A DNA stretch of 50,205 nt from Persephonella sp. (lineage in GTDB: Bacteria; Aquificota; Aquificia; Aquificales; Hydrogenothermaceae), in the NCBI GenBank assembly GCA_026987075.1, contig JALSNI010000025.1:1-50205 (forward strand), in the 5' to 3' direction. Made by a program: the position numbers and the translations under genes. The notes beneath the pieces are model-generated. The model did not search any database, was not told the DNA's origin, and saw nothing but the letters and a program-made list of their open reading frames with translations. Shown here one piece after another: positions 26,187 through 50,205 of this stretch (its first letter is position 1; each line of letters begins with the position of its first letter).

Positions 26187-26202
26187 CAGAAAGGAGGATA
26201 CA

Positions 26203-33808: not shown

Positions 33809-34025
33809 AAAAAACTCCTCTTAAGTTAAGTTTTAATTAGTTATTTTACCTAATACTTGGCTTACGCACAAAGATGTTAGGTATATAAAAAAAGTAAAAA
33901 TTAGCCCTATTTTTTGCCAGTTATAACCCCTTTTGAATTATTATATAAAAATATCAATTATATCTCTTTTCACTTTCCTCAAAGCACCTTAAATTAATTA
34001 CAAATTACAAAAATAGGAAAGTTTA
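33809..34025. other. AT-rich intergenic region
   Basis: Divergent spacer between the DsbC-like gene and the recombinase gene. No gene, clear repeat or strong promoter pair is seen; an AGGAAAG ribosome site lies at its right end before the ATG at 34026. Confidence 0.4.
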
Positions 34026-35024
34026 ATGTTTTTCCTGAGCAAGAATGGTTATTTTAAAGTCAAAAAAGAAGAAGTTTCAGAGGATTTGTCAAACATCTTC
34101 TACAGAACCGAATATACTGCAGACGCAGATTACTACTACATAAAAGCAAATGACCTTACTTTAGAAAAATTAGAAAAAAATTTTGATAAACATATCATAG
34201 ACCACAGCTGTTATCTTTACAGATTAAAAGAAAAACTAAAAAACTCTAATCTATCTATCAATACCCAGAAAACTTACTTTTCCATTAATTTGAATTTTAT
34301 AAAAACGGTCAATAAGACACCAGACAGCATTACAGAAAATGACATAACACGTTATTTATCAATACTAAAAAGGAGGAAAAAAAGTTCCAACACACTAACA
34401 GTAAATTACAGTGCCTTAAGATTTTTTTATGAAATTGTTTTGAACAAAATAAGCTTTCAAAGTATAAAAAGACCAGTAGCAACCACATCTCCTTCAGGAA
34501 CGCTTTCACGCTTAGAAATGTATAAACTGCTAAACTCTATTAAAAATCCAAAACATAAACTCTTATTAGAAATCACATACGGTTGCGGTCTAAAATTAAA
34601 CGAAGTTATCAAACTACGGCTTACAGACATAAATCTCCAAGACAGCAGTATAAAAGTAAGAGGTCACTCTCCAAGAACAATCAAAATCAGCCCAATTCTA
34701 AAAAAGAAAATAAAAGAATTTCTAAACCATACCAACAATACAAAATTTCTGTTTTTCTCCGTAAAGAAAAATGGTAAACATATCTCAGAAAGAACAGCAG
34801 AAAAAATTTTTAAAAATGCTCTAAAGAAAGCAAACATAAACAGAAAACTTTCCTTTAAATCTTTAAGAGACAGTTTTACAGTTCATATGTTAGAAAAAAA
34901 TGTTAAAAAAGAAGAACTGGCAAAAGTATTGGGAATAAATATAACCCAGTTTAACTCAAAGTATCATATATTCCTTGAAAATGAAGTTCATTTACCAGAC
35001 CTTCTTTCCTTTGAAGATATTTAA
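34026..35024 (+). CDS. tyrosine recombinase-like protein with degenerate active site
   Basis: 332 residues. It has an N-terminal SAM-like core-binding domain (about 65-145: NTQKTYFSINLNFI...ITENDITRYLSIL) and a C-terminal catalytic-fold domain (about 160-320). Of the family's catalytic residues, the first Arg is Lys190 (GLKLNE for GLRxSE), the His of HxxR is Lys278 (FKSLRDSF) with Arg281 kept, the second His position is Ile304 (LGIN for LGH), and Tyr313 is kept (SKYHIF). An extra 60-residue N-terminal part is not recognised. It probably binds DNA, but normal cleavage activity is doubtful. It is Lys/Asn-rich. Confidence 0.8.
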   Translation: MFFLSKNGYFKVKKEEVSEDLSNIFYRTEYTADADYYYIKANDLTLEKLEKNFDKHIIDHSCYLYRLKEKLKNSNLSINTQKTYFSINLNFIKTVNKTPDSITENDITRYLSILKRRKKSSNTLTVNYSALRFFYEIVLNKISFQSIKRPVATTSPSGTLSRLEMYKLLNSIKNPKHKLLLEITYGCGLKLNEVIKLRLTDINLQDSSIKVRGHSPRTIKISPILKKKIKEFLNHTNNTKFLFFSVKKNGKHISERTAEKIFKNALKKANINRKLSFKSLRDSFTVHMLEKNVKKEELAKVLGINITQFNSKYHIFLENEVHLPDLLSFEDI

Positions 35025-35102
35025 ATTTCGTTTAATACAAAAACAGAAAATATTGCTGCTAAATCCCTGCCTCTCAACTTAGAAAAAAAAGGAGGTTCAG
35101 GG

Positions 35103-37160
35103 ATGCGACATCTAATTACTCTTTTAATCTTCATGTTTTACTTGGGAGTATCTTTTGCAGATGAAGACCCTATTATGAAAAAAAGATTAATCTCAAACCT
35201 TGAGATTGTGTTGGGAGACGCTTCTAAGGATACACTGTCAATATATGATCTCAGAGGAAGAAGGTTAATCGCTGGTATATCTGTTAAGATAGCTCCAAAA
35301 TACAACCGTAAAGACGAAGTAGGCGCTGGTAATGTATTGGGAAACTATAGAGATGAAATTGTGGTCGGTTTCGGTAAAGAGAGAAAAGAGAAAAAATCCT
35401 TTAGAGGAAAGATAGTTATTTACTCACCAAGAGACTTTCATATCATAAGAAGTTTTAACATTGGATTTAGTGGATACGACGACCTTACTGTTGGAAATGT
35501 TATCCCGGACAAAAATGGTTATGACGAAATCATAATTGGCAGTGCTTATAGAGACACTCTAGAAGTTTATAACTCTGCAGGAAGGAAACTTGCCAGTGCT
35601 AACGTTGAATACCAGAGGTACGACAGGATAGCTTCTGGTGATGTGGATGGTGACGGAATCAACGAGATTTTGTTAGGTGATGCTTCCAGAGACAGCATAA
35701 GGATTTTTAAGTTTTCTAATGGTGCATTGGTAGAAGTATCTTCATTCCTAACAGAGAAACCTTTCAGCCGTGAAGATGACGTGGGAGCTGGTGATGTAGA
35801 TGGTGACGGTATTGATGAAATTATTTTCTTTGAGAATCCCAATACTATTAGAATTTACGACTTTCAGGGAGGAGAAAAATATTTATCAAAAACAGTTAAA
35901 TACGGCAAGTACTCCCATGTTTCTGTTGGAGACCTCAACTCAGATGGAAAAGCAGAAATTGTTATAGCTAATGCAAAAGATGACCTTATTCATGTGTATG
36001 ATATGAATGGAACAGAGCTTGGAAGAATAAACGCTGGAATTGAAAGGTACGACAGAATAGCCCTTGTAGATTACTATGGGGATTCATTGGTAGTAGGGAA
36101 ACCAAGGGGGCCAATACCTGTAACAATTAAAAATCAGGTCATAGCAGTGTTAAGCGAACCTCCAAAAGAAAAAAGCCTTTTTGGAAATCCAGAAAAATCA
36201 GGAGGTATATTTTACAGCTCTTACAAAAATCAGCAACAGCAGACAACACAGCAAACAGTGACTGCAATATCAAGCTTTACATTTTCTGCAGGTCTGCAAG
36301 CCCAGGTAGGAAGCTTGAGCATAGGAGGGGCAAAAATGTCCCTGAAATACCAACTTAGCAGATATTCTGAAAGAACCAGAGGTACAACTTTGCAAACCAC
36401 CATAGGTCAAAATATGATAGCAGATAACTATGAAGATAGACTATTTGCCATAACATCTACTTATCATCTGTATGAATATCCAATTATCAGTCCCAGAAAC
36501 TTAGCTGTAAAAAATGGAAAACAGCAGTATGTACTTGTTTCTGTTCCCGTCTCTCTCCAGACAAACACTATAGGTATTTACAAATCAAACACACATATTA
36601 ACGGATATGTTGCCACATATCCAGAAACAAAAAGAAAACTGTACCATTACTCACGGGACAATCAGATTGCAGAATGGGTGGTGGACATAACATGTACAGG
36701 AACAGAAGGATACTTCGCCCAAAAAAACGGAACAGTTAACATCTCGAAAACAAAAACAACCCATGAAATCAGTATCGGATTTACAGCAGGTGGAGGTCTG
36801 CCAGGAATAGCAAAAGTAAAGGAAAGTTTCAAAGGGAACTATTCAAACACCAAAATCAGCACTTACAAAGTGGCATTTGAAGAAACGACAAATATAAGTT
36901 TCAAATACGAAGGACAATTCCCTGGCTGTGGAGACCCTAATAAACATTACAAAATAGGAGCAGTTTTGTATTACGACAGCGTAGACGGACATCTGATATT
37001 AGATTACTATGTTCCACAAAAGGGCAGTTACTACAAAAAACCATCAGTAAAGATACCTGCTAAACCTCTCTTGCTTGATAAAAATGGAAGACTGTTACTT
37101 CAAAAGATACAGATCAGAAAAATCAAAATCAGACCAGAACTGCTCAAACGCCATTTCTAA
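35103..37160 (+). CDS. exported FG-GAP/VCBS-repeat protein with unrecognised C-terminal domain
   Basis: 685 residues. Signal peptide (1-19, cleaved near SFAD), then a repeat region (about 32-345) that looks like a beta-propeller. Calcium-type motifs in it include GDVDGDGINEI (179-189), GDVDGDGIDEI (230-240) and GDLNSDGKAEI (276-286), with weaker copies before and after. The C-terminal half (about 370-670) is rich in Ser/Thr/Tyr and beta-prone, with a lone pair of Cys (VDITCTGTEG and PGCGDP), and I do not recognise it. AAAGGAGG lies before the ATG. It is likely at the cell surface or secreted. Its neighbours give no clear partner. Confidence 0.78.
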   Translation: MRHLITLLIFMFYLGVSFADEDPIMKKRLISNLEIVLGDASKDTLSIYDLRGRRLIAGISVKIAPKYNRKDEVGAGNVLGNYRDEIVVGFGKERKEKKSFRGKIVIYSPRDFHIIRSFNIGFSGYDDLTVGNVIPDKNGYDEIIIGSAYRDTLEVYNSAGRKLASANVEYQRYDRIASGDVDGDGINEILLGDASRDSIRIFKFSNGALVEVSSFLTEKPFSREDDVGAGDVDGDGIDEIIFFENPNTIRIYDFQGGEKYLSKTVKYGKYSHVSVGDLNSDGKAEIVIANAKDDLIHVYDMNGTELGRINAGIERYDRIALVDYYGDSLVVGKPRGPIPVTIKNQVIAVLSEPPKEKSLFGNPEKSGGIFYSSYKNQQQQTTQQTVTAISSFTFSAGLQAQVGSLSIGGAKMSLKYQLSRYSERTRGTTLQTTIGQNMIADNYEDRLFAITSTYHLYEYPIISPRNLAVKNGKQQYVLVSVPVSLQTNTIGIYKSNTHINGYVATYPETKRKLYHYSRDNQIAEWVVDITCTGTEGYFAQKNGTVNISKTKTTHEISIGFTAGGGLPGIAKVKESFKGNYSNTKISTYKVAFEETTNISFKYEGQFPGCGDPNKHYKIGAVLYYDSVDGHLILDYYVPQKGSYYKKPSVKIPAKPLLLDKNGRLLLQKIQIRKIKIRPELLKRHF

Positions 37161-37165
37161 AATCT

Positions 37166-37184
37166 GGGGGGATTAATTCCCCCT
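37166..37184. terminator. bidirectional terminator between the VCBS gene and aat
   Basis: GGGGGA, loop TTAAT, TCCCCC in the 22-base gap between convergent stops. The stem is GC-rich; T-rich sequence is short on either side. Confidence 0.65.
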
Positions 37185-37854
37185 ACTTCCATTTTCCTGA
37201 CTTTGTAGGTTTTTTCAAAGACTGCCTGAGCCTATCTAAAAACTCTTTGCGAGATATTTCCACAGCTCCAAATCTTGCCATGTGAGGTGTTGACTGCTGA
37301 CAGTCTATCAGGTCAAAATTCCACTGTTTTAGTTTTTCAACCAGATACACAAAGGCAACCTTTGAAGCATCAGAAACAGTATGAAACATAGATTCCCCAA
37401 AAAACACACCTCCAAGAGAAACCCCGTAAAGCCCTCCAACAAGCTCTCCCTCTTTATACACTTCAACACTGTGGGCAAAACCAAGTCTGTGAAGCTCTGT
37501 ATATGCTTTTATCATCTCAGGTGTTATCCATGTGCCTGCCTGTCCCTTCCTTTTCACTGAAGCACACATATTTATTACCCTTTCAAAATCTGTATCAAAC
37601 TTTATCTCAAATATTTTTTTCTTCAAAATCTTTTTCAGACTTCTTGACACTCTTAGATTCTGTGGAAACAGAACCATCCTCGGGTCAGGAGACCACCACA
37701 AAACAGGCTCTCCTTCTGAATACCACGGAAATATACCTAAAGAATACGCAAAAATCAGTCTTTCTGGAGACAGGTCTCCTCCAACTGCAAGAGGATAATC
37801 TCCCGGAGCATTTTCAGGGTCAGGAAACCATATTTCGCTGTCTAACAGTATCAC
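37183..37854 (-). CDS. aat: leucyl/phenylalanyl-tRNA--protein transferase
   Basis: 223 residues, full length. It adds Leu or Phe from tRNA to proteins with N-terminal Arg or Lys, marking them for the Clp system (N-degron pathway). Seen: FPDPENAPGDYPLAVGGDLSPERLIFAYSLGIFPWYSEG (in part), WWSPDPRMVLFP, GTWITPEMIKAY, GLYGVSLGGVFFGESMF and IDCQQSTPHMARFGA. It is a core gene within the accessory stretch. ClpC is encoded in this window but the adaptor ClpS is not. Confidence 0.96.
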   Translation of the reverse strand: MILLDSEIWFPDPENAPGDYPLAVGGDLSPERLIFAYSLGIFPWYSEGEPVLWWSPDPRMVLFPQNLRVSRSLKKILKKKIFEIKFDTDFERVINMCASVKRKGQAGTWITPEMIKAYTELHRLGFAHSVEVYKEGELVGGLYGVSLGGVFFGESMFHTVSDASKVAFVYLVEKLKQWNFDLIDCQQSTPHMARFGAVEISRKEFLDRLRQSLKKPTKSGKWK

Positions 37855-37865
37855 TGATAATATCC

Positions 37866-38111
37866 CTATAAGAACTGATTAACTGCACTATTCCTCCCTG
37901 CCATAACCAATTCTTTTCCGTCTAAAAATTGTACTATATTAGCTTCCCTGATATATTCTTCCTTTTCGTTTAACTTTGAGATGTAAAAGCCTTTAGGTTT
38001 TCCTATCTTATTTTCCGCTTTACATATAAAAATTACAACAAGCTTTACAAAGCTTTCAAAGGATCCTACCCGATAAATTAGTTTAACTATATATAGTAGT
38101 TTAATGCAGTC
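37866..38111 (-). pseudogene. remnant of a protein-coding gene without a start
   Basis: On the minus strand an open frame of 81 codons runs to a TAG at 37866 and reads as normal protein in its last 65 codons (for example NKIGKPKGFYISKLNEKEE and NIVQFLDGKELVMAGRN). It has no ATG near its 5' end; an in-frame TAA lies at 38112-38114. It looks like the 3' end of a lost gene. I do not recognise the family. The rest of the 37855-38265 gap is AT-rich with no other gene. Confidence 0.45.
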
Positions 38112-38236
38112 TTATATCCTTATGCCTTATATATTTAGCAACTGTTAAAGGCTTAGCTCATTTCCAAACAAAAATAACTTATGGTTGAAATTTGAATTTT
38201 ATTTTTACTTTACAATAAAATTTAATTTTTGAATAA

Positions 38237-38252
38237 GGGGTCTAAATCCCCC
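38237..38252 (-). terminator. weak hairpin after the large helicase gene
   Basis: GGGG (38237-38240) and CCCCC (38248-38252) flank a short AT loop 14 bases after the helicase stop, and A/T-rich sequence follows. Short stem, so tentative. Confidence 0.4.
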
Positions 38253-38265
38253 ATATAAATACAAA

Positions 38266-41200
38266 CTATCTGAGGCTAAGAGCTTTTGAAGCTAAGATTC
38301 TTTGAAGTTTTCCAGCGTAAAACTGATTTGTAGGGTGTAAAAGACATATAGGACAAACAGTATCAGGAGAACAAATGCATTCATCTGCTATCTTTTTGGC
38401 TTCTTCTAAAACTTTCTCAAAATTTTCGTAAATTTCTTCTATAAAGCCAGCTCCAGCAGGAACACTGTCGTATAAAATTAAGTTAAAATCTTCCCTATTT
38501 CCATTTAGTCTTATCATCCCATTTATGTCTTCTCTTTTTATATCAAGAGCAGAAGATGCTCCTTCAAGAATTGCATATAACAACGATAGATAAACTGAAA
38601 ACGGATCTCCTTTAGCTTTATCTATTAACTCTAGCTTTATTCTTAAAGGAGGATGGATAAATAAAATATCTGTATAAAATCTATATCCTAGATTAACAAA
38701 TTTATTCTCTAAATTTTCTTTTCTTATGTGGTTTTGGCTATACATGCCAAAAGAAATTCCTCTCTTAAGGTCTACTCTTCGACTATCTGATGTGTTTAAT
38801 GTAACAATAGTTCCTCTATTATATGCTGATAATACAAATCCTTTCTTTTCTTTAGGTTCTTTAAATCTGTCTCCTTTTGATGAAAAGAACGACTGCCTGC
38901 GACTTAAATTAATAGGTTTAAAATCTCTATCCATATCTCCTACAGGGATAAAAAGTTTTTGACCTTTTGAAAGTCTTTCAACTTCGCTATAGGTCCTAGA
39001 ATTTAATATACTTTTAACATCTTGTTTGCTTTTAACATTCAATAAGCTGAAAAGATTTCTTGTTTCAAATCCTCTTGGAACTAAATATCTATCTTTTATG
39101 AAATTTTGGGTTTTTTTACAAACTGGACACTCTTCATATTCTAAAGGAGATCTTGAATCTGAAAAATAAAGACAGTTCCTACAGTAAAAATAATGATACA
39201 GTTCTGAACTTTCTTCTATAGGACCTAATCCCTTTAGTATTTTAACATTTGTAGCCATCACCATCTTACCAGCTACTATGACTCTTTCTCCCGGTGCATA
39301 TTCTCCAATAGCGAGATCCAGTCCTCTATCAAGCTGAACTACTGAAGAAAAGCTCCTTTCTTTCCCTCCATGAAGTTTAATTTTTGCACCTTTAACTTCC
39401 AAAGATGCTATGTCAACAGGAAATCCGTATTTAGGTATAAATACTTTTCTGCTGAAAAAGGTTATTATATCTTGGCTGTAAATTTCATTTAGATTTTCTT
39501 CATAAATTTTAACGAGGTCTTCTAAAAAAGATTTTCTTTTGTTTTCTTCATCAGATAGACCTTTTCTCCTTAATTTTTTCTTTAAATCTGCTAATTCATA
39601 TTCAAGCCCATCAATAGCATCATTTATCTCTTTAATTTCCTCTTCAAGCTCTTTATGTATTTTCTCCAAAAGTGCTTTACTATTGCCGTCTTCTATACTT
39701 GGTATTTTCCCGTCCCACCACTGCCATGTATCTACTCCAAATTCAGAGCTTAAAGTATGATCATTTAAAATTTTCTTTAACTCGTTTTTTATATTTTCTG
39801 GATGTGAATCTACATAAGATTTAAACTTATTGAAATGATCAATAAAATCCGAAATTTTGATTCTATCATAATCAGCAAAATTGTTTCTTAAATAATGAGA
39901 AAGTACTACCGCATTGAAGTGCCTTAATATAATTCTTTTATTGTTATCCTTTATGATCGGAGGTTTTATTTCTCCTTTTATCATCCTTAATGGATTTTCA
40001 AATACCTTTAAATCATGCGGTCTATTTAACGCGTAAGAAACTATTAATGCTGCGGATTTTGAACTCCTTCCTGCTCTTCCTGCTCTTTGAACATAGTTAT
40101 CAGGTCTTAGAGGAATATTATGCATATACACAACCTGTAGATCTCCCAGGTTGACCCCAAGCTCAAAAGTGGTACTACAGCTTAGAATATTTATCTTCCC
40201 TTCCGAAAAATCGTCTTGGACAATTTTCCCGTATTCCGTGGATAATTGAGCTGTATGTTCTTCAACTCTCACTTTCTTTTTTAAAGCATCTTTACAGTTT
40301 AAATTTCTAAATAATCTTAATAAGTACACAGCTTTAGGAATTTCCTGATTACTTACTTTTTTTAAGGTACCGCTACATTTATCCTGAGGACATGTACCTT
40401 TTAAATTCCAAGGAGTTACTTTCCTGCAGGTATCGCATCTGTAAACTTCATCTACTTTACTTACAAACCATGTATCAAACACTTTTGGTTCATCTAAAAA
40501 GTATCCTCTTTCTGGGTCAAAAACGAATAGAGTTCCCAGTCTATTTTCTATAAATGCCGGAAATATCTGCTTTAAAATTTCCTTTAACTCATCATCAGTT
40601 AAGCTATTTCCAGATTTATCATTTAAAGTTTTCTTTAAAAGCCTAAAAACATATCCTGTTCTTTCAGGTACCCATATATCAATCCCTAAGTGTTCTCCCG
40701 TCCTCCTTGTAGTTGGAGGAGTTCCTTCTTCCCATATACTTCTTGCAAAACCGGTAAAAAGATTATGAAAATTATTTGTAACTTTGTATTTTCTAATGTA
40801 TCCATAGATATAATAAATAAAATTTTTTAATTCTTCATTGCTGAAATAATTTTTTAAATCTGTCTCTTTCAATTCCTTTAATAATGCCTCTTCTATACTT
40901 TTGTCTAACCTGTATTTTACTAAACCTGTACTTTCAAATGCTTCCTCTTTAAAAAACATAAAATCCTTTAATATTTCAAGCTTAAATCTTTTTATTTCCT
41001 CTTCTTTGTCAGCTTCTGTAGGTTTTTTACTGAAACCGCTCAGTACACAACTTTTACAATTTTCTGCAAGTGTTTTTAATAAAATATCTTTTTCACTTTC
41101 TGCAATTTGATTGTACATAATCTGGTCAGTCCATCTTTCGTTGTAGAACTTCTGAAAAAATGGAGCAAAAAATGCAGCATCTCTTCTGCTGTCAGAAAAA

Positions 41201-43140
41201 ATTATGATTTTTCTTTCTTTAGGAAATTCTGAAACATCTACTAAATCTTTATATACAGATTCTAAAGAAACAGCCTGTGGATACTCATCAGGCGGAGTAA
41301 AGAAACTCACCCATCTACCTTTCTTATAATGTTTTCCGGCAATACCACAAGATGGACATTTGTTAGGCTGGTTATATGGACTGTCTTCCGGTATTAATTC
41401 ATAAGCATAGAAGGGTTTATCTGTACCTTCAGATAAAGGTTTGATAATACCTGTTTTTGGGTCAAAATCAATTTCTCTTCCGTCTCTACCTATTTTAAAG
41501 TCTATGTCATTATCTTTCTTAATAGGTATTTTAGAAATGTATATGTAAGACCTTCTTACTTCCATTTCGAGTCTAAATGGATCCTCTAAAAGCTCAGGTT
41601 CTATATCAATATATAGATTCCCATCAGATTTTCTCTTTTTGTAACCTGTAATAAACATTTCACCACAGTTTTTACAAGTAGTTAGTTGATAGACCTTTCT
41701 ATTTTCATGCTCTAATTTTTTTTGGAAAAATACTTCTCCTATTTCTCCACTGTCTTCTATTGTTCCAAAAATACCTTCTAAAGACCTGATAAAAATGTGG
41801 AATTTCACATCTAACAGCCTTATTTCATTCCCTTTTCTTTTTTTCTTTGCTTTGTATAAAAGGTCTATAAATGCTAAAAGTTGCTCTTCGTCTAAAAGTG
41901 GAGTGTATTTTGTAGAAACTGCAGTTATAAAATCTTCTAAAGGAACTACTTTTTCTGTTTTTAAATATTCTCTTATAAGCCTATATCCTTGATAGTTTTT
42001 AAAAAATGCAAAAAGCATTTCTTCTTTTGTTCCTGCTCTGTAAAGTTCACTAATAGATTTCAACCCTAAAAGATAATTTTTAAAATCCATATCGCTTAGT
42101 TCATAGTATTTATTCAGTATTTCTATGAAGTCTAAAGAGTTGTACCAAAGAGTAGCAGTAGGATCATCTATTTCTATATCTTCTCTGTAAACAGGTAAAA
42201 TAACATCTTCTTTTTTAAATTCCTCTCCAAATAATCTTGACGCAAAATCAGCAGATTTTTCTAAATCTTCTTCTGTTCCTCTTCCCATTGTAGCACTTGC
42301 ACCTATGCAAAGAGGCTTTTCTTTAAAAGCATTAATCTTTAATCTTCTTAATAGATACCCTACTTCTGTACCTTTTGCCCCGTCGTAGATGTGAACCTCG
42401 TCAAGTACTATAAATTTCCACCGTCCTCCATGGAATAAAGGAGTATCTTTAGGTCTTAAAAGTAAAAATTCAAGCATAGAATAGTTTGTAATCAGAATAT
42501 CAGGTATTTCCTCAAGAATTTCCTCTCTTGTTATAAGTTCCTCAGGACACGCCTTTTTTAGGTTACTGTACTCTTTTTTACTCATCCAATCTTTTGTATA
42601 TGGAGTATCACCTGTATATCTTCCAAAAGTTATTCCTGTGCCAGATAAAGTATCTCTTAGCTCTTGAAGCTGGTCATTGACAAGAGCATTCATAGGATAG
42701 AGAAAAATCGCTTTAACTCCTTTTGTATCTATTCCTTTGGCATTTAACTGGTCTTTTAGCTTAAGTATGTAGTCAAATACGGGAATTAAAAAAGCTTTTG
42801 TCTTACCCGAAGCTGTTCCTGTAGAGATTAAAGTATTTCTATTATTTTTTACTACATTTAATATTACATCCTCCTGGTGCTGTCTAAGATGTAAATCTGG
42901 ATATATATCTTTTAGTTTTGGATGTAAAATTCCATCCTCAACTAACTGCTCTACAGTTTTTCCTTTTTCGTACTCTAAGGATAACTGGAGGTATGGACCT
43001 TTCACATATCTTGACGGGTCTTTAGCTTTAAATATCTTATCATTTAAATCTTTATACCTTGTTTCCCAAAAGGTCTCTAGATAACCAACATAAACATCCT
43101 GCAAATTTTTGTAAACAGTTAAAGGATTTAATACTTTCAT
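38266..43140 (-). CDS. large superfamily-2 helicase with Zn-ribbons and C-terminal DUF1998-like domain
   Basis: 1624 residues. Helicase motifs: I GTASGKT (108-114), Ia LYPMNALVNDQ (148-158), NYSMLEFLLLRP, II DEVH (247-250), III SAT (282-284). After a long insertion comes a segment with FSDSRRDAAFFAPFF, then V STTFELGVNLG and VI QRAGRAGR. Cys pairs form likely zinc ribbons: CKNCGEMF, CPSCGIAG, CDTCRKV...CPQDKCSG, and CRNC...CPVCKK. The C terminus (DSVPAGAGFIEEIYENF...CICSPDTVCPICL) is the DUF1998 Cys motif. This architecture occurs in MrfA-type repair helicases and in DISARM, Dpd and Druantia defence proteins. Its ATG overlaps the stop of the upstream 644-residue gene by four bases. Confidence 0.88.
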   Translation of the reverse strand: MKVLNPLTVYKNLQDVYVGYLETFWETRYKDLNDKIFKAKDPSRYVKGPYLQLSLEYEKGKTVEQLVEDGILHPKLKDIYPDLHLRQHQEDVILNVVKNNRNTLISTGTASGKTKAFLIPVFDYILKLKDQLNAKGIDTKGVKAIFLYPMNALVNDQLQELRDTLSGTGITFGRYTGDTPYTKDWMSKKEYSNLKKACPEELITREEILEEIPDILITNYSMLEFLLLRPKDTPLFHGGRWKFIVLDEVHIYDGAKGTEVGYLLRRLKINAFKEKPLCIGASATMGRGTEEDLEKSADFASRLFGEEFKKEDVILPVYREDIEIDDPTATLWYNSLDFIEILNKYYELSDMDFKNYLLGLKSISELYRAGTKEEMLFAFFKNYQGYRLIREYLKTEKVVPLEDFITAVSTKYTPLLDEEQLLAFIDLLYKAKKKRKGNEIRLLDVKFHIFIRSLEGIFGTIEDSGEIGEVFFQKKLEHENRKVYQLTTCKNCGEMFITGYKKRKSDGNLYIDIEPELLEDPFRLEMEVRRSYIYISKIPIKKDNDIDFKIGRDGREIDFDPKTGIIKPLSEGTDKPFYAYELIPEDSPYNQPNKCPSCGIAGKHYKKGRWVSFFTPPDEYPQAVSLESVYKDLVDVSEFPKERKIIIFSDSRRDAAFFAPFFQKFYNERWTDQIMYNQIAESEKDILLKTLAENCKSCVLSGFSKKPTEADKEEEIKRFKLEILKDFMFFKEEAFESTGLVKYRLDKSIEEALLKELKETDLKNYFSNEELKNFIYYIYGYIRKYKVTNNFHNLFTGFARSIWEEGTPPTTRRTGEHLGIDIWVPERTGYVFRLLKKTLNDKSGNSLTDDELKEILKQIFPAFIENRLGTLFVFDPERGYFLDEPKVFDTWFVSKVDEVYRCDTCRKVTPWNLKGTCPQDKCSGTLKKVSNQEIPKAVYLLRLFRNLNCKDALKKKVRVEEHTAQLSTEYGKIVQDDFSEGKINILSCSTTFELGVNLGDLQVVYMHNIPLRPDNYVQRAGRAGRSSKSAALIVSYALNRPHDLKVFENPLRMIKGEIKPPIIKDNNKRIILRHFNAVVLSHYLRNNFADYDRIKISDFIDHFNKFKSYVDSHPENIKNELKKILNDHTLSSEFGVDTWQWWDGKIPSIEDGNSKALLEKIHKELEEEIKEINDAIDGLEYELADLKKKLRRKGLSDEENKRKSFLEDLVKIYEENLNEIYSQDIITFFSRKVFIPKYGFPVDIASLEVKGAKIKLHGGKERSFSSVVQLDRGLDLAIGEYAPGERVIVAGKMVMATNVKILKGLGPIEESSELYHYFYCRNCLYFSDSRSPLEYEECPVCKKTQNFIKDRYLVPRGFETRNLFSLLNVKSKQDVKSILNSRTYSEVERLSKGQKLFIPVGDMDRDFKPINLSRRQSFFSSKGDRFKEPKEKKGFVLSAYNRGTIVTLNTSDSRRVDLKRGISFGMYSQNHIRKENLENKFVNLGYRFYTDILFIHPPLRIKLELIDKAKGDPFSVYLSLLYAILEGASSALDIKREDINGMIRLNGNREDFNLILYDSVPAGAGFIEEIYENFEKVLEEAKKIADECICSPDTVCPICLLHPTNQFYAGKLQRILASKALSLR

Positions 43141-45071
43141 TTTTTATCCTCCAAATAAAAATATCTATTTAGTAGTGCCCCGAACTCACGACTATTTAAT
43201 AGTTTTCTTGCAGTTTCATTATGGCAGTATCTTCCTTTATTCAGAAATTCTTCAAGCTCTTTAAGTAATTTCTTTGGTTCTACATTTTCTTTAATGTTCA
43301 ATATTTTTTTTAGAAAAAAAAATAAAGTTCTTTCTATTCTTAGATTTATTGGAAGATTTTGTTTTAATTTAAACCTTGGAAGATTGTATTTATAAACCAC
43401 TCCTATGCAATAGTGCATTGCTACTTCTCTAAATTTTTTAAAGGGACATATATTTTTATCTTTTCCTTCTAAAAATATGCAGTCTATTGGAATCTTTTCG
43501 CGAGGAAGATACAAGCAAACTTTTATAGGAAATACCAAATACTTTAAGTACGGAGATAAATCTATATTTATTTGCCCACTCTTTCTTACTTCAAATGTAA
43601 CTATAAAAAATCCACAATTATTAAATAGTTTTACATAAGTTTTATCTACAATTTCGCTATTTTTTATATTTACTTTCAGTATATTTTCTTCTATTTTTGT
43701 TTTTTCTTTATCTATATAGACAATTTCTACTTTAAACCTACCAAAAGACTCTTCTATAATCTCTCCCATTTTGTATATTTTATTTTTATATTTTATATGG
43801 AAGTTCCCCAAAAGACGTGGTTTCTCTTTACAAACATAAATGACTTTTTCTTTAGAATAAACTTGAAATTTTTCAGATTCAGACAGCGATTCCTTAGATC
43901 TATTAACCGTATAGTTTAATATATATTTACCTTCTTCTGAAAATTCATTTTTTTTCATTAAATCATTACTATCATAAACTTCCTCAGAAGGAGTAATTAA
44001 AGTTAAAGTTAAAAACTCCTGTCTATGAAAATCAATTTTTATTTTGTTATAGAAGACAACACCTTCTTTATATAGAGGTTTTAAGTATGGGATTTTTTCT
44101 CCTTGTATATTTATATATTTAGATATATTTTCCTTATATACATATAGTCTATAATTTTTTATCTCTTCATTGTTTAATGGATAGTTAAAAACCTCATATA
44201 TTAGGTAAGGAGGATCTTCATATCTTATAAAGTTGTAGTTGTCGTCTAATGAAGTTCTAACATCATTTTTAAGTACTATATAATAAGGCTGTTTTGTGAG
44301 AACTATTTCCTTTTTTTCTTGGTTAAAAAGCGGTTTTATTCTTTTTCCTTCTGCATCAAAAAAAGCCATCTCTTTTCCAGATCTCTTCAAGGAATCGCAA
44401 ATAGTAATTTTGCTGTTTTCTATACTAAGACATTTTCTTTTTTGTCCTTTTAATTCTTCTTTCTTCCTTTTGAAATTTACGACTATCTTCCCAAACCAAT
44501 CCGGGAAGCTGTAAACATCTAACTCCTCGTTCCATATTTCAAATATCTCTTTTATAATATCTTTAAATTTTGGAATAAGAGCTTTTTGGTATAAAGCATA
44601 ATCTATAACGTGCGTTCCTAACGTTTCAAAATTAAAATAGTTTTGTAAGGTTTCTTTATTAAAGGTATCTATGTCTTCTAAATTGCCGTTTAGCTCCTTA
44701 TAAAGTTTGTAAACGACATTTAAATAATTCTCGGCATAAGGCTTAGGTATAAAAACATGTATCAATATAAGTTCGATATCTCTGTAAGCTTCTTTATTAA
44801 CTCTGGTAATAGGATAAAAAAGTCCGTAATTTTTTAGAATTTTTTTTAAAGAGTTCATGTATTTATTTGTGTCACTAATTTTTGGTTCCTGACTCCATAT
44901 TGCATGATTTTGATAATTTAGTCCTCTGTATAAAAGAACTAAGAATCTCTTGTAATCAGAATATATATTTTTTAAATTTTTTAATTCTTCTTCATACTGT
45001 TCAATGTCCACCCAAAATTTTGGTAAATCCCAAGCTAGTTTTATTTCTTTTCCTTTGATGCCTTCAGTCAT
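43137..45071 (-). CDS. protein of unknown function, partner of the helicase
   Basis: 644 residues from the ATG at 45071; a TTG four codons earlier is less likely because GGGGGG lies five bases before the ATG. I do not recognise it. It has no signal peptide, membrane segment or known motif. The N-terminal 200 residues look helical (Tyr/Lys/Leu-rich), residues about 215-520 look beta-rich with many short strands, and the end is helical again. Cys and His are scattered, including CPFKKFREVAMHYC. Overlaps at both ends (eight bases with the restored PLD frame, four with the helicase) show it is part of one operon. Confidence 0.75.
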   Translation of the reverse strand: MTEGIKGKEIKLAWDLPKFWVDIEQYEEELKNLKNIYSDYKRFLVLLYRGLNYQNHAIWSQEPKISDTNKYMNSLKKILKNYGLFYPITRVNKEAYRDIELILIHVFIPKPYAENYLNVVYKLYKELNGNLEDIDTFNKETLQNYFNFETLGTHVIDYALYQKALIPKFKDIIKEIFEIWNEELDVYSFPDWFGKIVVNFKRKKEELKGQKRKCLSIENSKITICDSLKRSGKEMAFFDAEGKRIKPLFNQEKKEIVLTKQPYYIVLKNDVRTSLDDNYNFIRYEDPPYLIYEVFNYPLNNEEIKNYRLYVYKENISKYINIQGEKIPYLKPLYKEGVVFYNKIKIDFHRQEFLTLTLITPSEEVYDSNDLMKKNEFSEEGKYILNYTVNRSKESLSESEKFQVYSKEKVIYVCKEKPRLLGNFHIKYKNKIYKMGEIIEESFGRFKVEIVYIDKEKTKIEENILKVNIKNSEIVDKTYVKLFNNCGFFIVTFEVRKSGQINIDLSPYLKYLVFPIKVCLYLPREKIPIDCIFLEGKDKNICPFKKFREVAMHYCIGVVYKYNLPRFKLKQNLPINLRIERTLFFFLKKILNIKENVEPKKLLKELEEFLNKGRYCHNETARKLLNSREFGALLNRYFYLEDKK

Positions 45072-45540
45072 AAAACCCCCCAAATTTCGTTAAATATATC
45101 TATAATTGTTTTAATTTTTTTATCTTTTTCTTCTATTAAGACAGCTAAAACTCTATGTTTTTAAATAAAGCGTTTTGAGTTATGTTGTGCGACCCTATTA
45201 TTGCTTCCTTATCATCAAATATTATGAATTTTGCATGCAAACTGCTTCCTTCTATATCGTAAACTTTAAAATAAAAATTGTTTGGAAAATCTTTTTTTAA
45301 AGAGTAAGTTTTCCTTTTTATCCGAGAAAATCCTTCTTTATCTACAACCAACTTAACTTCTAAATTTTTTGAATTTGAAAGTCTACCTTCTAGCTGCTTA
45401 AAAAACATCTCATCGTGCACTACATAAGAAACTATTTTTATTGACTTTTGTGCTTCTTTTATCCTTCTATATAATTCTTGGACATATAAAGAAGCCTCTT
45501 CAGGAAAATTTGTATCATTACAGCTTAATAGAATTTTCAT
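45064..45540 (-). pseudogene. phospholipase D-like protein, frameshifted near the 3' end as given
   Basis: As written, the frame from the ATG at 45540 stops at 45145 after 131 residues. It carries a PLD/nuclease motif: His102, Lys104 and Asp109 in LHAKFIIFDD, then GSHN (116-119). After ...NALFKNIEF the frame ends at TTTTAG; one more T would give continuing sequence ...AVLIEEKDKKIKTIIDIFNEIW and a stop at 45064, overlapping the next gene by eight bases (ATGACTGA). This overlap is what an intact operon gene would show, so the break at 45147-45150 is recent or a sequencing error. A single HKD motif implies it works as a dimer. GGGGGAGG precedes the ATG. Confidence 0.75.
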
Positions 45541-45558
45541 GCTGTTCCTCCCCCTTAA

Positions 45559-45825
45559 TTAATAATTTTTCGAAGAAATTTTACAATTTCTTAATATTTT
45601 ATACTTTATCTGAAAACTTAACTTCAGCTCTTTTACCAAATTAGATTTGCTTCTACCAAGAGTTTTGGCAAGCTTTTTTAGTTCTTTGTTTTTAGATATA
45701 TAATTCAATAAATTTACAGAAACAAAACTCTTTGTAATAATTAACCTTAGTTTCCTATTCAAAAAAATTAAAGATAAAAAAAGAGCAACAAAATAACAGT
45801 AAAAAGCCAATGGAAGAAAAAACAA
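45559..45825 (-). CDS. small ribbon-helix-helix-like protein, 5' end uncertain
   Basis: 88 residues as read from 45825, but the first 26 are hydrophobic and may not belong. Residues about 33-65 (KSFVSVNL then ELKKLAKTLGRSKSNLVKEL) resemble a ribbon-helix-helix DNA-binding fold: a short strand, a helix, then GRSKSNLV as in CopG/Arc-type regulators. It ends 18 bases before the PLD gene on the same strand, the right place for an operon regulator. The real start is unclear and it may be truncated by the transposase debris on its 5' side. Low-complexity sequence makes this tentative. Confidence 0.4.
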   Translation of the reverse strand: MFFLPLAFYCYFVALFLSLIFLNRKLRLIITKSFVSVNLLNYISKNKELKKLAKTLGRSKSNLVKELKLSFQIKYKILRNCKISSKNY

Positions 45826-46265
45826 TGACGTATAAAATAATTTTCATGATTGTAAATGAGGTATTAAAAATGATTGAACATAAGCACAAAACAAACAAAA
45901 ATTCTCTGATAGTAAGATTAATTACTCTTTTAGTATTTGCCTCTACTTTTAGAAAAAGAGAAATAAAATCCTTAATAAAAGAATCCAAAGAAAGCTATAG
46001 TAATATGTTTCCTTATGTACCACAACTATCTGCAATTGTAAAAAAGTAAAGAAATCAAAAAATTAGTAAAACTTTCAGTTTATTGGTAATAAATCTATTA
46101 TCAAACAAAGAGTCAACAATAGCCATCCTTGATACTAAACCAATTTCCATTTATGAGCTAATGAGTATAAAAAGGACACAAAAATTAGGAAAATATATAA
46201 GGATAACAATGAAAATAAAGAACAATTTGGATATAAACTCAGTGTTAAATAATAGATATATTTAA
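45810..46265 (+). pseudogene. transposase-like remnant in two frames
   Basis: Two plus-strand frames follow each other: 45810-46049 (MTYKIIFMIVNEVLKMIEHKH..., ending SAIVKK) and 46083-46265 (containing TIAILDTKPISIYELMSIKR). The second has an Asp in a hydrophobic-DTKP context like the first catalytic Asp of DDE transposases, and the first resembles the helical N terminus of such proteins. The pieces are interrupted by stops and end early. I cannot assign an IS family and see no clear terminal inverted repeats. Confidence 0.4.
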
Positions 46266-46287
46266 ACAACCAATATCATTCAACATA

Positions 46288-46481
46288 ATGCCTGCTTTAA
46301 GATACGATATAAATGCGTTGAAACAGTTACAAAAAGCAAAGACGAATGAAAAAGATAATTGACTTACTGCTTTTAGCAATAACAGTAGACCTATGCTTTT
46401 GAACAATGCTTTGAGCTTGCAGTCAGTAACGACAGAATAAATTTTCTCTTGCTTCGCTCAATAGTAGTAATTAGCAAGTAA
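46288..46481 (+). pseudogene. further coding debris of unknown origin
   Basis: Short fragments in shifting frames: a 24-residue piece from the ATG at 46288 (MPALRYDINALKQLQK...), an overlapping hydrophobic piece from 46346, and a stop-bounded frame 46392-46481 reading YAFEQCFELAVSNDRINFLL. They read as protein rather than random sequence but none is complete. Together with the preceding remnant they fill the 1-kb gap between the PLD-side genes and the Cys-rich lipoprotein. The last 100 bases (46482-46578) hold nothing I can identify. Confidence 0.35.
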
Positions 46482-46578
46482 TTCAAATTGGCTAAAAATT
46501 TTGTACAGATACGATACAACCCTTGCTCAAAATTTAAACAGCTATTAAGATTAATAAAAACAAAACTTAAGGGCAAAT

Positions 46579-47166
46579 ATGTTCAGAATTATAGTCTTGA
46601 TGTTCATTATATTTATAACAGCCTGCTCACCTAAATATAAGATAGAAAAGATTTACCACCCTCCTTCTGATAAAAACTGTCTGAGGGAATGTGATAGAGA
46701 GTTTAACACCTGTCAAAGTAGCTGTCAGAAAAGTTACCAGCAGTGTCTGAAAGACTCAATAAGCAGAGCTAAAAGTATATATGATAGATTGGAAAGGGAA
46801 TACCAGACAAAACTTGACAGATATTACAGAAATTACGACAGATACCTGAAAGAGTTAGATGCTTACAATAAACAGCTCAGCACATACAGGAAAGACTATC
46901 AGTTCTATGCAAAAATCTGCTCCCAGTATAAAGACAGGGAAGCCTGCCAGAGAAAAGACTATCTAAAGAAAAAAATCAAATCTATTGAATACCAGAAGCC
47001 CAACCCTCCCCAAAAACCTTCAAAGATAGATTTCGAAACAGTACTGAAAAAAGAAAGACAGGCATGTTCCTGTGATTGTGGATGTAGAGAGCTTTATGAT
47101 GCCTGCTATCAGGGATGCGGAGGCAGGGTAGAGATTAGAAAGGTATGCATAGAACACTGCGACTAA
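46579..47166 (+). CDS. Cys-rich, Tyr-rich lipoprotein of unknown function
   Basis: 195 residues. Signal peptide with lipobox IFITAC (Cys16), so it should be lipid-anchored. The mature part has a Cys-rich block (CLRECDREFNTCQSSCQKSYQQC), a long Tyr/Lys/Gln-rich coiled coil (about 70-150), then a second Cys-rich block (CSCDCGCRELYDACYQGCGG, ending VCIEHCD). About 16 Cys after the lipobox suggest many disulfides or metal binding. No family recognised. It converges on metH with a four-base overlap. Confidence 0.72.
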   Translation: MFRIIVLMFIIFITACSPKYKIEKIYHPPSDKNCLRECDREFNTCQSSCQKSYQQCLKDSISRAKSIYDRLEREYQTKLDRYYRNYDRYLKELDAYNKQLSTYRKDYQFYAKICSQYKDREACQRKDYLKKKIKSIEYQKPNPPQKPSKIDFETVLKKERQACSCDCGCRELYDACYQGCGGRVEIRKVCIEHCD

Positions 47167-50100
47167 ACTGCAAAATATGTTGCCTCCGGATGATAAACAA
47201 CGATGGCATCTGTTGACTGTTCAGGAACAATAAGGAAGTTTTCTGTAAGGTGTATTCCAAACTCTTCAGGTTTTAGCAGAGAAAATATTTTTTCGTTGAG
47301 CTGAAGGTCTGGACAGGCTGGATAACCGGGAGAGTATCTTGCCCCCTGATATTTTCTGATTTGCCAGTTGACGTCCTCAAGGCTTTCCCCTTCCCCTTTT
47401 GCTATACCAAGTTCTATTCTTATCTGTTTGTGAACAATCTCAGCAAGGGCTTCAGCAAGCTCAACACCAAGACCGTGTATAAGGTGATATTCTTTGTATT
47501 TACCTTCTTTAAACAGCTGATTTTCATACTCTGAAAGTCTGCTTCCTGCAGAAACTACTGTAAAGGCAACAACATCGTGTCTGTCTGGATGAAAGTAATC
47601 CGCTATGCATCTGTAAGGAGGTTTTGATGAGCGGGGAAAGTTCATTACAAGCTCTGCTGTTCCTATTATGTTTTCTAATGGTTCTATGTTCACATCACTT
47701 TCTGACTTCCAGCCCTGAGTTTCAGGGAATATAATAAGAGAGCACTCCCTGTTTTCCTCTTCTTCTGACGGAAAGTCTGAACGGCAAGGCCAGTATCCGT
47801 ATATTATTACCGGCTGGAACAGATTTTCTTTTATGAGAAGATTTTTGAGCCTTTCAAATGTGGGAATTATCTCTTCTTTTTTCAGTTTTTCATACTCTTC
47901 ACGGCTTTTATTTCCTCTACTGTATCCCCATGCCCTTTTAAACAGTCCTCCTTTGTTTATCCATTCAAATGCAAGCTCCTGTATGTATCTGTACAGCTTT
48001 TTATCGTCCATTTCAGGATGTATCCATACCTTTCTTCCCCAAAATGGTGGCGTAGGAACAGGAATATTTCTGTCTGGCATTTTTATCTGTGATATAGGAG
48101 GAATGTTTATTTTTTCTTCAACTGCTGTTTCTGTTATTTCTTCTTCATCTTTATGTCCCAGATCTGTGTCTAAAGGAGAGTTCCCGTCCCATTTTTCTAT
48201 CCTTGTCATTGCTTCTATTCCATCAAAGGCATCTCTGCAGTAAAAAACAGGTCCGTCATAAACAGGTCTGCAAAACTCATCAACAAACTTTTTGTTCAGT
48301 GCAGCTCCTCCAAGAAGAACAGGAACTTTTATCCCTCTCTTTTTCATCTCTTCTAAATTGTTCTTCATCTCCAAAGTAGACTTTACAAGAAGTCCGCTCA
48401 TACCAATAGCATCAGCATTGTGTTCCTCATAGGCTTTTATAAAGTCTTCCAACTCAACCTTTATCCCTATGTTTACCACTTTAAAGCCGTTATTTGTCAG
48501 AATAATGTCAACGAGATTTTTCCCAACATCGTGGACGTCTCCCTTTACTGTTCCCAGTATAAGTGTTGCCTGTTTGTCCTTTTTCTTTTTAGGCAAATAC
48601 TGGTTTAGATAGTCAACAGCAGATTTCATCGCCTCTGCAGATTGGAGGACAAACGGCAGCTGCATCTTTCCTTCACCAAACAGGTCTCCTACCACTTTCA
48701 TAGCATCAATAAGAATTTCGTTTATTATCTTTTCCGGCGGTATTGTGTGCCGTGCTTCTTCCACTGCTTTTATCAGTTTTTCTTTTTCTCCATCTATGAG
48801 CAGTCTTTTTATCTTTTCTTCTATAGGCAGTTTTGAAAGCTGGTCATCCTGCTGCGGCGTGTCTTTTCCTTTTTTGTTTGAAAAATGCTGTATAAACTTA
48901 AACAGCGGGTCTTCTCCATTCTCCCACACATTAAACAGCAAGTTTTCACACACTTTTCTATCTTCTTCTGAGATTTTGTGGTAGGGAATGAGATGTTTTG
49001 GATTAACTATAGCCATAGTCAAACCAGCCTGAACACAGTGGTGAAGGAAAACAGAGTTTAGATACTTCCTTGCTGATGCTTCAAGACCAAAGGACACATT
49101 GGATATTCCTAAAACAAATCCAACCTCTGGATGTCTTTCTCTTATCTCCTTTATAGCTTCTATTGTCTGAACAGCAGCGTCCCTGTATTCTTCATCCCCT
49201 GAACCTACTGTAAATGTTAGAACATCAAACACTAAGTCTTCAGGATTAAGGCCGTGCTTTTCTGTCGCAAGCTTATACATTCTTTCGGCAACTTCCACTT
49301 TTCTCTCTTTTGTTTTTGCCATTCCTTTTTCATCTATTGTCAGAAGAACAACAGCGCTCCCAAATCGTTTTGCAAGCTGACATATTCTGTTAAACTTTTC
49401 TTCTCCATCTTCAAGGTTTGCAGAATTTAGGATAGGTTTTCCTCCTATCAGCTTGAGGGCTTCTTCCAGTGTTTTAGGCTGTGTTGAATCTGGCATAAGG
49501 GGAACAGGTATCTTCTCGTTAAAACGGCTGATAACAGCCTTCATATCCTTAATCTCGTCCCTTCCTGCAAAGTTTACTGAAACATCAAGGGCATGTGAAC
49601 CTGCCTTAACCTGTTCCTGAGCAATAGACAAAATAGCATCGTAATCTTCAGCAAGGAGCAGTTCTCTAAACTTTTTTGAGCCTGTGGCATTTGTTCTTTC
49701 TCCAACTAAAAATGGCGGAGGCTGTTGTTTAAGGGGCTGGATACCATAAAGGGAAGCAAGAGCTCTTGGCTGTTTTCCCTTAGGTGGTTTTGGTTTTTTC
49801 CCTTTTACTTTTTCTGCTAAGGCTTTTATGTGGGCAGGTGTTGTTCCACAGCAACCTCCAACAATGGCGACACCGTCAAACTGTAAAAACCTGCTCTCTT
49901 TTTCTGCAAACTCTTCCGCTCCCATAGGGTAGTATGTATGTCCACCTCTGTTTTCTGGAAGTCCTGCATTTGAATGGATAGATATAGGTCTGCCCCATAC
50001 TTGAGAAAGGGTTTTCAGATGTTTCTCTATCTGGTCTGGACCTGTTCCACAGTTAAAGCCTAAAGAAAGCACGTCAAATGGTTCCATTATGACTGCTAAT

Positions 50101-50205
50101 GTCTGAACATCTGTTCCAATCAGCATTGTTCCTGTAAGCTCAATGGTTGCCGATACCATAACAGGTATTTCTTTTCCTGCTTCTTTAGAAGCGTCCTGCA
50201 CTGCA
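47163..50205 (-). CDS. metH: cobalamin-dependent methionine synthase, 5' end outside the window
   Basis: At least 1012 residues; the frame is open to the window edge, so the first part is missing. Domains seen: the end of the homocysteine-binding domain with its zinc Cys residues (FNCGTG and GGCCGTTPAHI); the folate-binding domain (RTNATGSKKFRELL, ANLEDGEEKFN); the cobalamin cap; the B12-binding domain with DVHDVGKN and GMSGLLVKS; and the C-terminal activation domain that binds SAM, with RYSPGYPACPDL. It methylates homocysteine using methyl-tetrahydrofolate. The presence of the activation domain marks the full MetH type rather than a short archaeal or split form. Any riboswitch would lie outside the window. 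Confidence 0.96.
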   Translation of the reverse strand, partial: AVQDASKEAGKEIPVMVSATIELTGTMLIGTDVQTLAVIMEPFDVLSLGFNCGTGPDQIEKHLKTLSQVWGRPISIHSNAGLPENRGGHTYYPMGAEEFAEKESRFLQFDGVAIVGGCCGTTPAHIKALAEKVKGKKPKPPKGKQPRALASLYGIQPLKQQPPPFLVGERTNATGSKKFRELLLAEDYDAILSIAQEQVKAGSHALDVSVNFAGRDEIKDMKAVISRFNEKIPVPLMPDSTQPKTLEEALKLIGGKPILNSANLEDGEEKFNRICQLAKRFGSAVVLLTIDEKGMAKTKERKVEVAERMYKLATEKHGLNPEDLVFDVLTFTVGSGDEEYRDAAVQTIEAIKEIRERHPEVGFVLGISNVSFGLEASARKYLNSVFLHHCVQAGLTMAIVNPKHLIPYHKISEEDRKVCENLLFNVWENGEDPLFKFIQHFSNKKGKDTPQQDDQLSKLPIEEKIKRLLIDGEKEKLIKAVEEARHTIPPEKIINEILIDAMKVVGDLFGEGKMQLPFVLQSAEAMKSAVDYLNQYLPKKKKDKQATLILGTVKGDVHDVGKNLVDIILTNNGFKVVNIGIKVELEDFIKAYEEHNADAIGMSGLLVKSTLEMKNNLEEMKKRGIKVPVLLGGAALNKKFVDEFCRPVYDGPVFYCRDAFDGIEAMTRIEKWDGNSPLDTDLGHKDEEEITETAVEEKINIPPISQIKMPDRNIPVPTPPFWGRKVWIHPEMDDKKLYRYIQELAFEWINKGGLFKRAWGYSRGNKSREEYEKLKKEEIIPTFERLKNLLIKENLFQPVIIYGYWPCRSDFPSEEEENRECSLIIFPETQGWKSESDVNIEPLENIIGTAELVMNFPRSSKPPYRCIADYFHPDRHDVVAFTVVSAGSRLSEYENQLFKEGKYKEYHLIHGLGVELAEALAEIVHKQIRIELGIAKGEGESLEDVNWQIRKYQGARYSPGYPACPDLQLNEKIFSLLKPEEFGIHLTENFLIVPEQSTDAIVVYHPEATYFAV

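What the first reader, a model, noticed from the sequence alone, without database searches (positions are those of the whole stretch)
38266..45540. Candidate anti-phage operon: PLD-like protein, unknown 644-residue protein, DUF1998 helicase
Seen: three genes on one strand with stop/start overlaps, encoding a single-HKD phospholipase-D-like protein, an unrecognised protein and a 1624-residue SF2 helicase with several Zn ribbons and a DUF1998-type end. Known: helicase/DUF1998 plus PLD proteins occur in DISARM (DrmA, DrmB, DrmC), in the Dpd cluster (late genes include a DUF1998 helicase and a PLD-like protein) and helicase-DUF1998 in Druantia (DruE). Inferred: here helicase and DUF1998 are one protein, there is no methylase and no deazapurine-insertion gene, and the middle protein matches nothing I know, so this may be a compact stand-alone relative. 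A CRISPR array, a recombinase and transposase debris within about 14 kb fit a defence island.
Basis: partly seen in the sequence, partly recalled or inferred. Interest (0 to 1): 0.88.

Follow-up and report, generated by a model that had tools for sequence, protein, structure and literature searches.

The report
Mobile Druantia-like defence gene pair
A recently inserted block of DNA in a heat-loving bacterium carries a large helicase of the Druantia anti-virus family paired with a fast-changing protein of a new family, plus a small nuclease gene that is broken here; it is probably a new variant of a known kind of phage defence.

Summary
A 1624-aa YprA/DUF1998 helicase (38266-43140, -) and a 644-aa protein (43137-45071, -) overlap by ATGA. 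The PLD gene (45145-45540) is frameshifted: an extra TT cuts it to 131 aa, so its stop/start overlap exists only in the intact relative L015.

The core is the middle protein plus the helicase; it occurs without PLD in two other Aquificota loci. The helicase is DruE-family (PADLOC DruE1, 528 bits) but branches outside the DruE1, DruE3 and ARMADA clades, with a Ruminococcus phage helicase that also has an upstream partner. It has no C-terminal nuclease. The middle protein matches no Pfam, PADLOC or PDB family, DruH included.

The genes lie in an 8.66-kb insertion absent from the same site in a closely related genome, and are rare in the phylum (4 of 136 genomes). Relatives lie beside DruA, a PARIS-like gene, or inside hsdM.

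Best reading: a Druantia-like two-component defence module: middle protein as probable sensor (DruH role, not a detectable DruH), helicase as effector, PLD as accessory nuclease. New variant of a known kind; activity untested.

The parts
37854..46513 (.). Inserted segment (about 8.66 kb) between the leucyl/phenylalanyl-tRNA transferase gene and a 195-aa lipoprotein-like gene
   Evidence: Window 33921-37853 and 46514-50205 match G081 (L096 2585-6516 and 6550-10241) at 97.3% and 99.2%; G081 has 33 bp between the two ends
38266..43140 (-). DruE-like SF2 helicase, 1624 aa, with DUF1998/MZB end and no C-terminal nuclease domain
   Evidence: Pfam DEAD, Helicase_C, MZB; PADLOC DruE1 528 bits, DruE3 469 bits; trees
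42799..42822 (-). Walker A motif (TGTASGKT, residues 107-114)
   Evidence: invariant apart from one A/G position in A1
42391..42402 (-). Walker B / DExH box (residues 247-250)
   Evidence: invariant D, E and H in A1
40066..40089 (-). Motif VI QRAGRAGR (residues 1018-1025)
   Evidence: invariant in A1
38341..38577 (-). MZB/DUF1998 zinc domain (residues 1522-1600), four invariant Cys
   Evidence: Pfam PF09369 6.8e-12; Cys 1588, 1590, 1596, 1599 invariant
43137..45071 (-). Partner protein, 644 aa, new family; putative infection sensor
   Evidence: no Pfam or PADLOC match, no PDB match; homologues next to a DruE-like helicase in L015, L011, L012 and a truncated L014
44697..44768 (-). N-terminal conserved segment of the partner (residues 102-125)
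   Evidence: core of the hhalign match to the Ruminococcus phage partner, score 35.6; 0 of 379 shuffles reach it
43152..44071 (-). C-terminal half of the partner: tract that differs sharply between two otherwise near-identical loci
   Evidence: 133/920 differences inside against 143/5886 outside, Fisher p 3e-46; dS 0.38-0.47 against 0.03-0.12 in the N-terminal half
45145..45540 (-). PLD-family nuclease ORF (one HKD motif), cut to 131 aa by a frameshift; accessory gene
   Evidence: PLDc_2 8.8e-15; short DrmC-type profile PDLC02614 68.5 bits, 85 bits for the intact L015 copy
45147..45150 (-). Site of the extra TT that breaks the PLD frame
   Evidence: GAGTTTTAGC here, GAGTTAGC in L015
45739..46345 (.). 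Remnant of a transposase gene inside the insertion
   Evidence: 74% identical to the IS transposase gene of L015

Best explanation
This is a horizontally acquired, Druantia-like two-component defence module. The 644-aa protein is the probable infection sensor and occupies the gene position and role that DruH has in Druantia III. The 1624-aa DruE-like YprA helicase is the effector motor: it loads on single-stranded or branched DNA of the invader and unwinds or remodels it, blocking replication. Because this helicase lacks the C-terminal nuclease of Escherichia coli DruE, a separate PLD-family nuclease is an optional accessory in this lineage; in the window it is frameshifted, so the pair probably acts alone or with host nucleases. 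Shown here: gene order, family of the helicase, its intact motifs, absence of a fused nuclease, mobility, patchy distribution, purifying selection. Inferred: defence function, sensor and effector roles, DNA target.
For: DruE profiles are the best matches by a wide margin (528 bits against 89 for DpdJ and 73 for DrmA). In the tree the helicase lies on the Druantia side of a 100/100 split from ARMADA. The gene order partner-helicase with overlap equals DruH-DruE (L028). There is an empty site in a closely related genome. Partner homologues are in 4 of 136 phylum genomes and DruE-like helicases in 5 of 136. L011 has a DruA gene abutting the pair (Pfam 1.3e-68), while DruA is in only 5 of 136 genomes. 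An AriAB/PARIS-like gene is near L015. The pair in G018 lies within a split hsdM. A phage carries such a pair. dN/dS is 0.25 for both core genes. The partner diverges faster than the helicase (28-31% against 44-46% identity), as reported for DruH against DruE (PMC13192584). A nuclease-less DruE with DruH defends against phages in Mycolicibacterium smegmatis (PMC13316683).
Against: No phage assay exists for this lineage. The partner has no detectable sequence relation to DruH, and its structure model failed (pLDDT 30.5), so the sensor role rests on position and evolution only. G068, which holds the closest relative, has 7% contamination. The tree places the clade with 92/93 support, and its root is assumed.
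Confidence: 0.68

Rival explanations
1. It is an ordinary Druantia type III system whose DruH has shortened and diverged beyond recognition.
For: Same two-gene order and overlap; DruH is itself very divergent; nuclease-less type III DruE proteins exist (M. smegmatis, PMC13316683; Azotobacter L067, 1705 aa); PMC12458937 mentions a distinct Druantia III-like branch that most often lacks a nuclease.
Against: No PADLOC DruH model matches at E up to 1, whereas a divergent DruH of Chryseobacterium does at 8.5e-39. hhalign of the partner profile with E. coli DruH is at noise (score 16.5). The helicase is outside the DruE3 clade (100/100). The partner lacks the N-terminal GGLP segment shared by the four DruH proteins read here.
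Confidence: 0.2
2. It is a DNA-repair operon of the MrfAB/YprAB type.
For: YprA-family helicases include the repair helicase MrfA, and the PDB search finds YprA at 1.3e-18.
Against: No MrfB exonuclease gene beside it; present in few genomes, on an insertion absent from a near relative; DruE-type profile and extra zinc modules.
Confidence: 0.06
3. It is a compact DISARM, Dpd, BRIGADE or ARMADA relative, with PLD as a core nuclease.
For: A short DrmC-like PLD is present in two loci; BRIGADE and Dpd also have PLD proteins without the four-helix bundle (PMC12458937).
Against: Helicase and DUF1998 fused; no methylase, BrxHII-like or deazapurine gene in the insertion; PLD absent from L011 and L012 and broken here; tree separates it from ARMADA at 100/100. 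BRIGADE references were not available for the tree.
Confidence: 0.06

Closest known systems
Druantia type III (DruH-DruE)
   Same: Two genes in the same order with overlapping or touching ends; DruE-family DUF1998 helicase; upstream partner that evolves faster than the helicase; carried by mobile elements
   Different: Partner 644 aa against about 1000-1130 aa and no detectable DruH similarity; helicase outside the DruE3 clade; no fused PLD domains
Druantia type I (DruABCDE)
   Same: Best PADLOC profile is DruE1; one relative (L011) has DruA next to the pair
   Different: No DruA-D in the window; DruE1 score 528 bits against 1566-1891 for genuine DruE1 proteins
Druantia type IV (PADLOC: DruE, DruF, DruL)
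   Same: DruE plus an unannotated protein (PMC8565338)
   Different: No PADLOC Druantia model other than DruE matches any of the three proteins here
DISARM (DrmABC)
   Same: YprA-type helicase, DUF1998 module, PLD protein
   Different: Helicase and DUF1998 in one protein; PLD too short to hold the N-terminal bundle; no methylase
ARMADA types I and II
   Same: YprA helicase of the same wider lineage
   Different: No BrxHII-like helicase or PglX methylase; no Vsr domain; different clade
Two-gene pair of Ruminococcus phage NatCom_28274 (L021)
   Same: Overlapping partner and nuclease-less DruE-like helicase; related N-terminal segment of the partner
   Different: Partner 916 aa, only that segment detectably similar; no PLD; carried by a phage

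Membership tests
Druantia (any type) | DruE-family YprA helicase with DUF1998 | tested here: met
   PADLOC DruE1 2.2e-158 and MZB 6.8e-12; Druantia side of the tree
Druantia (any type) | Anti-phage activity | not testable with these tools
   needs plaque assays
Druantia type I | DruA, DruB, DruC, DruD beside DruE | tested here: not met
   no PADLOC Druantia match besides DruE; no DruA in the genome
Druantia type III | DruH upstream of DruE | tested here: not met
   no DruH model matches at E up to 1; hhalign at noise
Druantia type III | Helicase groups with DruE3 | tested here: not met
   DruE3 clade 100/100 excludes it
Druantia type III | Partner-helicase two-gene order with overlap | tested here: met
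   ATGA overlap at 43137-43140; same order in L015, L011, L012; sensor role not shown
Druantia types II and IV | DruF with DruM/DruG or DruL | tested here: not met
   no PADLOC match for the middle protein at E up to 1
DISARM | Separate DrmA helicase and DrmB DUF1998 proteins | tested here: not met
   one 1624-aa protein carries both
DISARM | DrmC-like PLD protein | tested here: inconclusive
   short DrmC profile matches but the protein is truncated here and absent from two relatives
DISARM | Associated DNA methylase | tested here: not met
   none among the ORFs of the insertion
ARMADA | BrxHII-like helicase and PglX methylase in the operon | tested here: not met
   none in the insertion
ARMADA | Helicase in ARMADA clade with C-terminal Vsr | tested here: not met
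   100/100 split; protein ends just after the MZB domain
Dpd / BRIGADE | Deazapurine synthesis and insertion genes | tested here: not met
   none in the insertion; the whole genome was not searched for dpdA
Dpd / BRIGADE | Helicase groups with DpdJ or BRIGADE helicases | tested here: inconclusive
   DpdJ scores 89 bits only; no BRIGADE reference in the tree
MrfAB repair | MrfB exonuclease neighbour and wide conservation | tested here: not met
   no such neighbour; DruE-type helicase in 5 of 136 genomes

The most novel reading that the evidence does not exclude
The pair founds a separate Druantia type in which an unrelated sensor family has replaced DruH, and the sensor's C-terminal half is an exchangeable specificity cassette: two loci with 97% identical helicases differ by a sharp 0.9-kb tract covering only that half. 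The nuclease is a detachable PLD gene.
Probability: 0.3. Interest if true: 0.65.

Novelty: new variant of a known kind. Interest (0 to 1): 0.45.

Why it matters
If true, Druantia-type helicases work with more than one kind of sensor, and sensor replacement is part of how this defence family diversified. The pair is small and without a fused nuclease, so it is a clean case for testing whether helicase action alone stops phages. The near-identical loci with different C-terminal halves of the partner offer a ready-made natural swap for testing which part recognises the phage.

Tried and rejected

Scans of viral contigs with the partner or the phage proteins found no relatives; the helicase profile found four more distant ones. 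Plasmids hold no partner homologue. The genome-contig scan found only the 88% relative.

The G005 hit (L008) was weak (E 0.006), overlapped a 2-isopropylmalate synthase-like ORF, did not recur with the profile and was dropped.

PLD was compared with the C-terminal parts of eight DruE-type helicases: no similarity, so there is no sequence support for the idea that it is a split-off DruE nuclease.

Positive selection on the partner was considered and not supported: dN/dS equals that of the helicase (0.25); the excess difference is a block of high dS, which fits exchange of a segment.

Programmed frameshifting in PLD was considered and judged unlikely: the site is no slippery heptamer and the relative simply lacks the two extra T.

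Searching other phyla by genome handle was not possible.

Full report
**What is there.** On the minus strand the window encodes a 1624-aa helicase (38266-43140), a 644-aa protein (43137-45071, ATG start) and a 131-aa PLD ORF (45145-45540). The helicase carries DEAD, Helicase_C and MZB/DUF1998 domains. Walker A, DExH, SAT and QRAGRAGR motifs and sixteen Cys in four clusters are conserved among four relatives. It ends about 24 residues after the MZB domain, so no nuclease is fused. The 644-aa protein matches nothing in Pfam or PADLOC, and its family profile matches nothing in the PDB.

**Correction to the PLD gene.** The window PLD ORF stops 73 bp before the 644-aa gene. The relative in G068 (L015) reads GAGTTAGC where the window reads GAGTTTTAGC. 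The extra TT removes the last part of the PLD domain; the HKD motif remains. In L015 the intact 160-aa PLD overlaps the middle gene. Whether the break is real or an assembly error cannot be told without reads.

**The core is two genes.** Searches of 136 Aquificota genomes with the middle protein found it in four: the window genome, G068 (two copies), G071 (fragment) and G127. L015 has PLD, middle and helicase. L011 (G068, second copy) and L012 (G127) have middle and helicase only. A DruE-profile search found one more system (G018, L052) with a different 767-aa upstream partner, and an ARMADA-I-like system in G071 with a methylase gene. PLD is therefore an accessory.

**It is a recent insertion.** In sister genome G081 the flanking genes are adjacent: window 33921-37853 and 46514-50205 match at 97.3% and 99.2%, with 33 bp between them in G081. 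The inserted segment is 37854-46513. In the other genomes of the genus where both flanking genes fall on one contig they are also side by side or under 1 kb apart. The CRISPR array and the integrase-like gene at 34026-35024 are in G081 too and so belong to the older chromosome. A decayed transposase gene (45739-46345) lies inside the insertion. No clear terminal repeats were found at its ends.

**Company of relatives.** L011: a DruA gene (Pfam DruA 1.3e-68) abuts the helicase, and a Cas4-like protein and an SF1-type helicase follow on the other side. DruA occurs in only 5 of 136 genomes, so the adjacency is notable. L015: an AriAB/PARIS-like gene lies about 1.5 kb from PLD. L052: the pair lies between two halves of hsdM, with a 14-nt inverted repeat near the junctions. 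L021: a Ruminococcus phage carries an overlapping 916-aa protein and 1558-aa helicase.

**Family of the helicase.** PADLOC ranks DruE1 (528 bits) and DruE3 (469) far above DpdJ (89), DrmA (73) and BrxH (68), but genuine DruE1 proteins score 1566-1891. Trees of 25 and 28 helicases agree: ARMADA splits off at 100/100; DruE1 and DruE3 are separate clades at 100/100; the window helicase, L015, L011 and L012 form a clade at 100/100, grouped with L052 and L021 at 92/93. Rooting at ARMADA is an assumption taken from PMC12458937. That preprint mentions a distinct Druantia III-like branch that most often has no nuclease; this clade may belong to it, which could not be tested.

**The partner.** It is not DruH by sequence. 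A profile comparison with about 100 ORFs near other helicases ranked the phage partner first among those shown (score about 35.6 over an N-terminal segment); none of 379 shuffles of that protein reached it, the highest being 28. The two are probably related, though the nominal hhalign probability is low (14.7%). The partner evolves faster than the helicase (28-31% against 44-46% identity). Between window and L015 the first half of the partner, the helicase and PLD differ by about 2%, while nucleotides 1000-1920 of the partner gene differ by 14% (p 3e-46). dN/dS is 0.25 for both genes, so this is best read as exchange of a gene segment, not as adaptive point change.

**How it most likely works.** In E. 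coli Druantia III, DruH is the likely sensor and DruE loads on 3' single-stranded DNA and cuts through C-terminal PLD domains (PMC13192584, PMC12458937). In M. smegmatis a nuclease-less DruE (1667 aa) with DruH blocks phage DNA circularisation and replication, and is triggered by a tail protein (PMC13316683). By analogy the 644-aa protein senses infection and licenses the helicase, which acts on invader DNA; PLD, where intact, adds cutting. All functional steps are inferred. Alternatives (divergent DruH, repair operon, DISARM/Dpd/ARMADA relative) are weighed in their own sections.

**Verdict.** A real, mobile, Druantia-like defence module with a new partner family and a broken accessory PLD: a new variant of a known kind.

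Noticed in passing
L011 3984-15893 (G068:C320): DruA, the partner-helicase pair, a Cas4-like/RecB-type protein and an SF1-type helicase lie together; may be a larger defence island.
   Followed up: partly
L052 5135-13918 (G018:C3): A partner-helicase pair lies between two halves of an hsdM gene, with an inverted repeat GCCGCCAAGCGAAA near the two junctions, which suggests a mobile element.
   Followed up: partly
L053 249-10852 (G071:C181): ARMADA-I-like set in Aquificota: large methylase, two small ORFs and a YprA helicase with a Vsr-like end.
   Followed up: partly
L021 4254-11677: A Ruminococcus phage carries a two-gene DruE-like system between its endolysin and replication genes.
   Followed up: partly
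window 32527-32823: CRISPR array has 5 repeats here; the corresponding stretch in sister genome G081 (L096 about 871-2248) holds many more.
   Followed up: no
window 10924-11191: A 268-bp stretch is 81% identical to sequence next to the CRISPR array in G081 (L096 2298-2561).
   Followed up: no
window 10000-10351: tmRNA found by Rfam (188.8 bits) but not by ARAGORN.
   Followed up: no
window 24700-27555: Three successive ORFs rich in 33-residue repeats that look like ankyrin repeats (99-bp DNA period).
   Followed up: no
window 35103-37160: 685-aa protein with FG-GAP repeats beside the integrase-like gene, conserved in G081.
   Followed up: no
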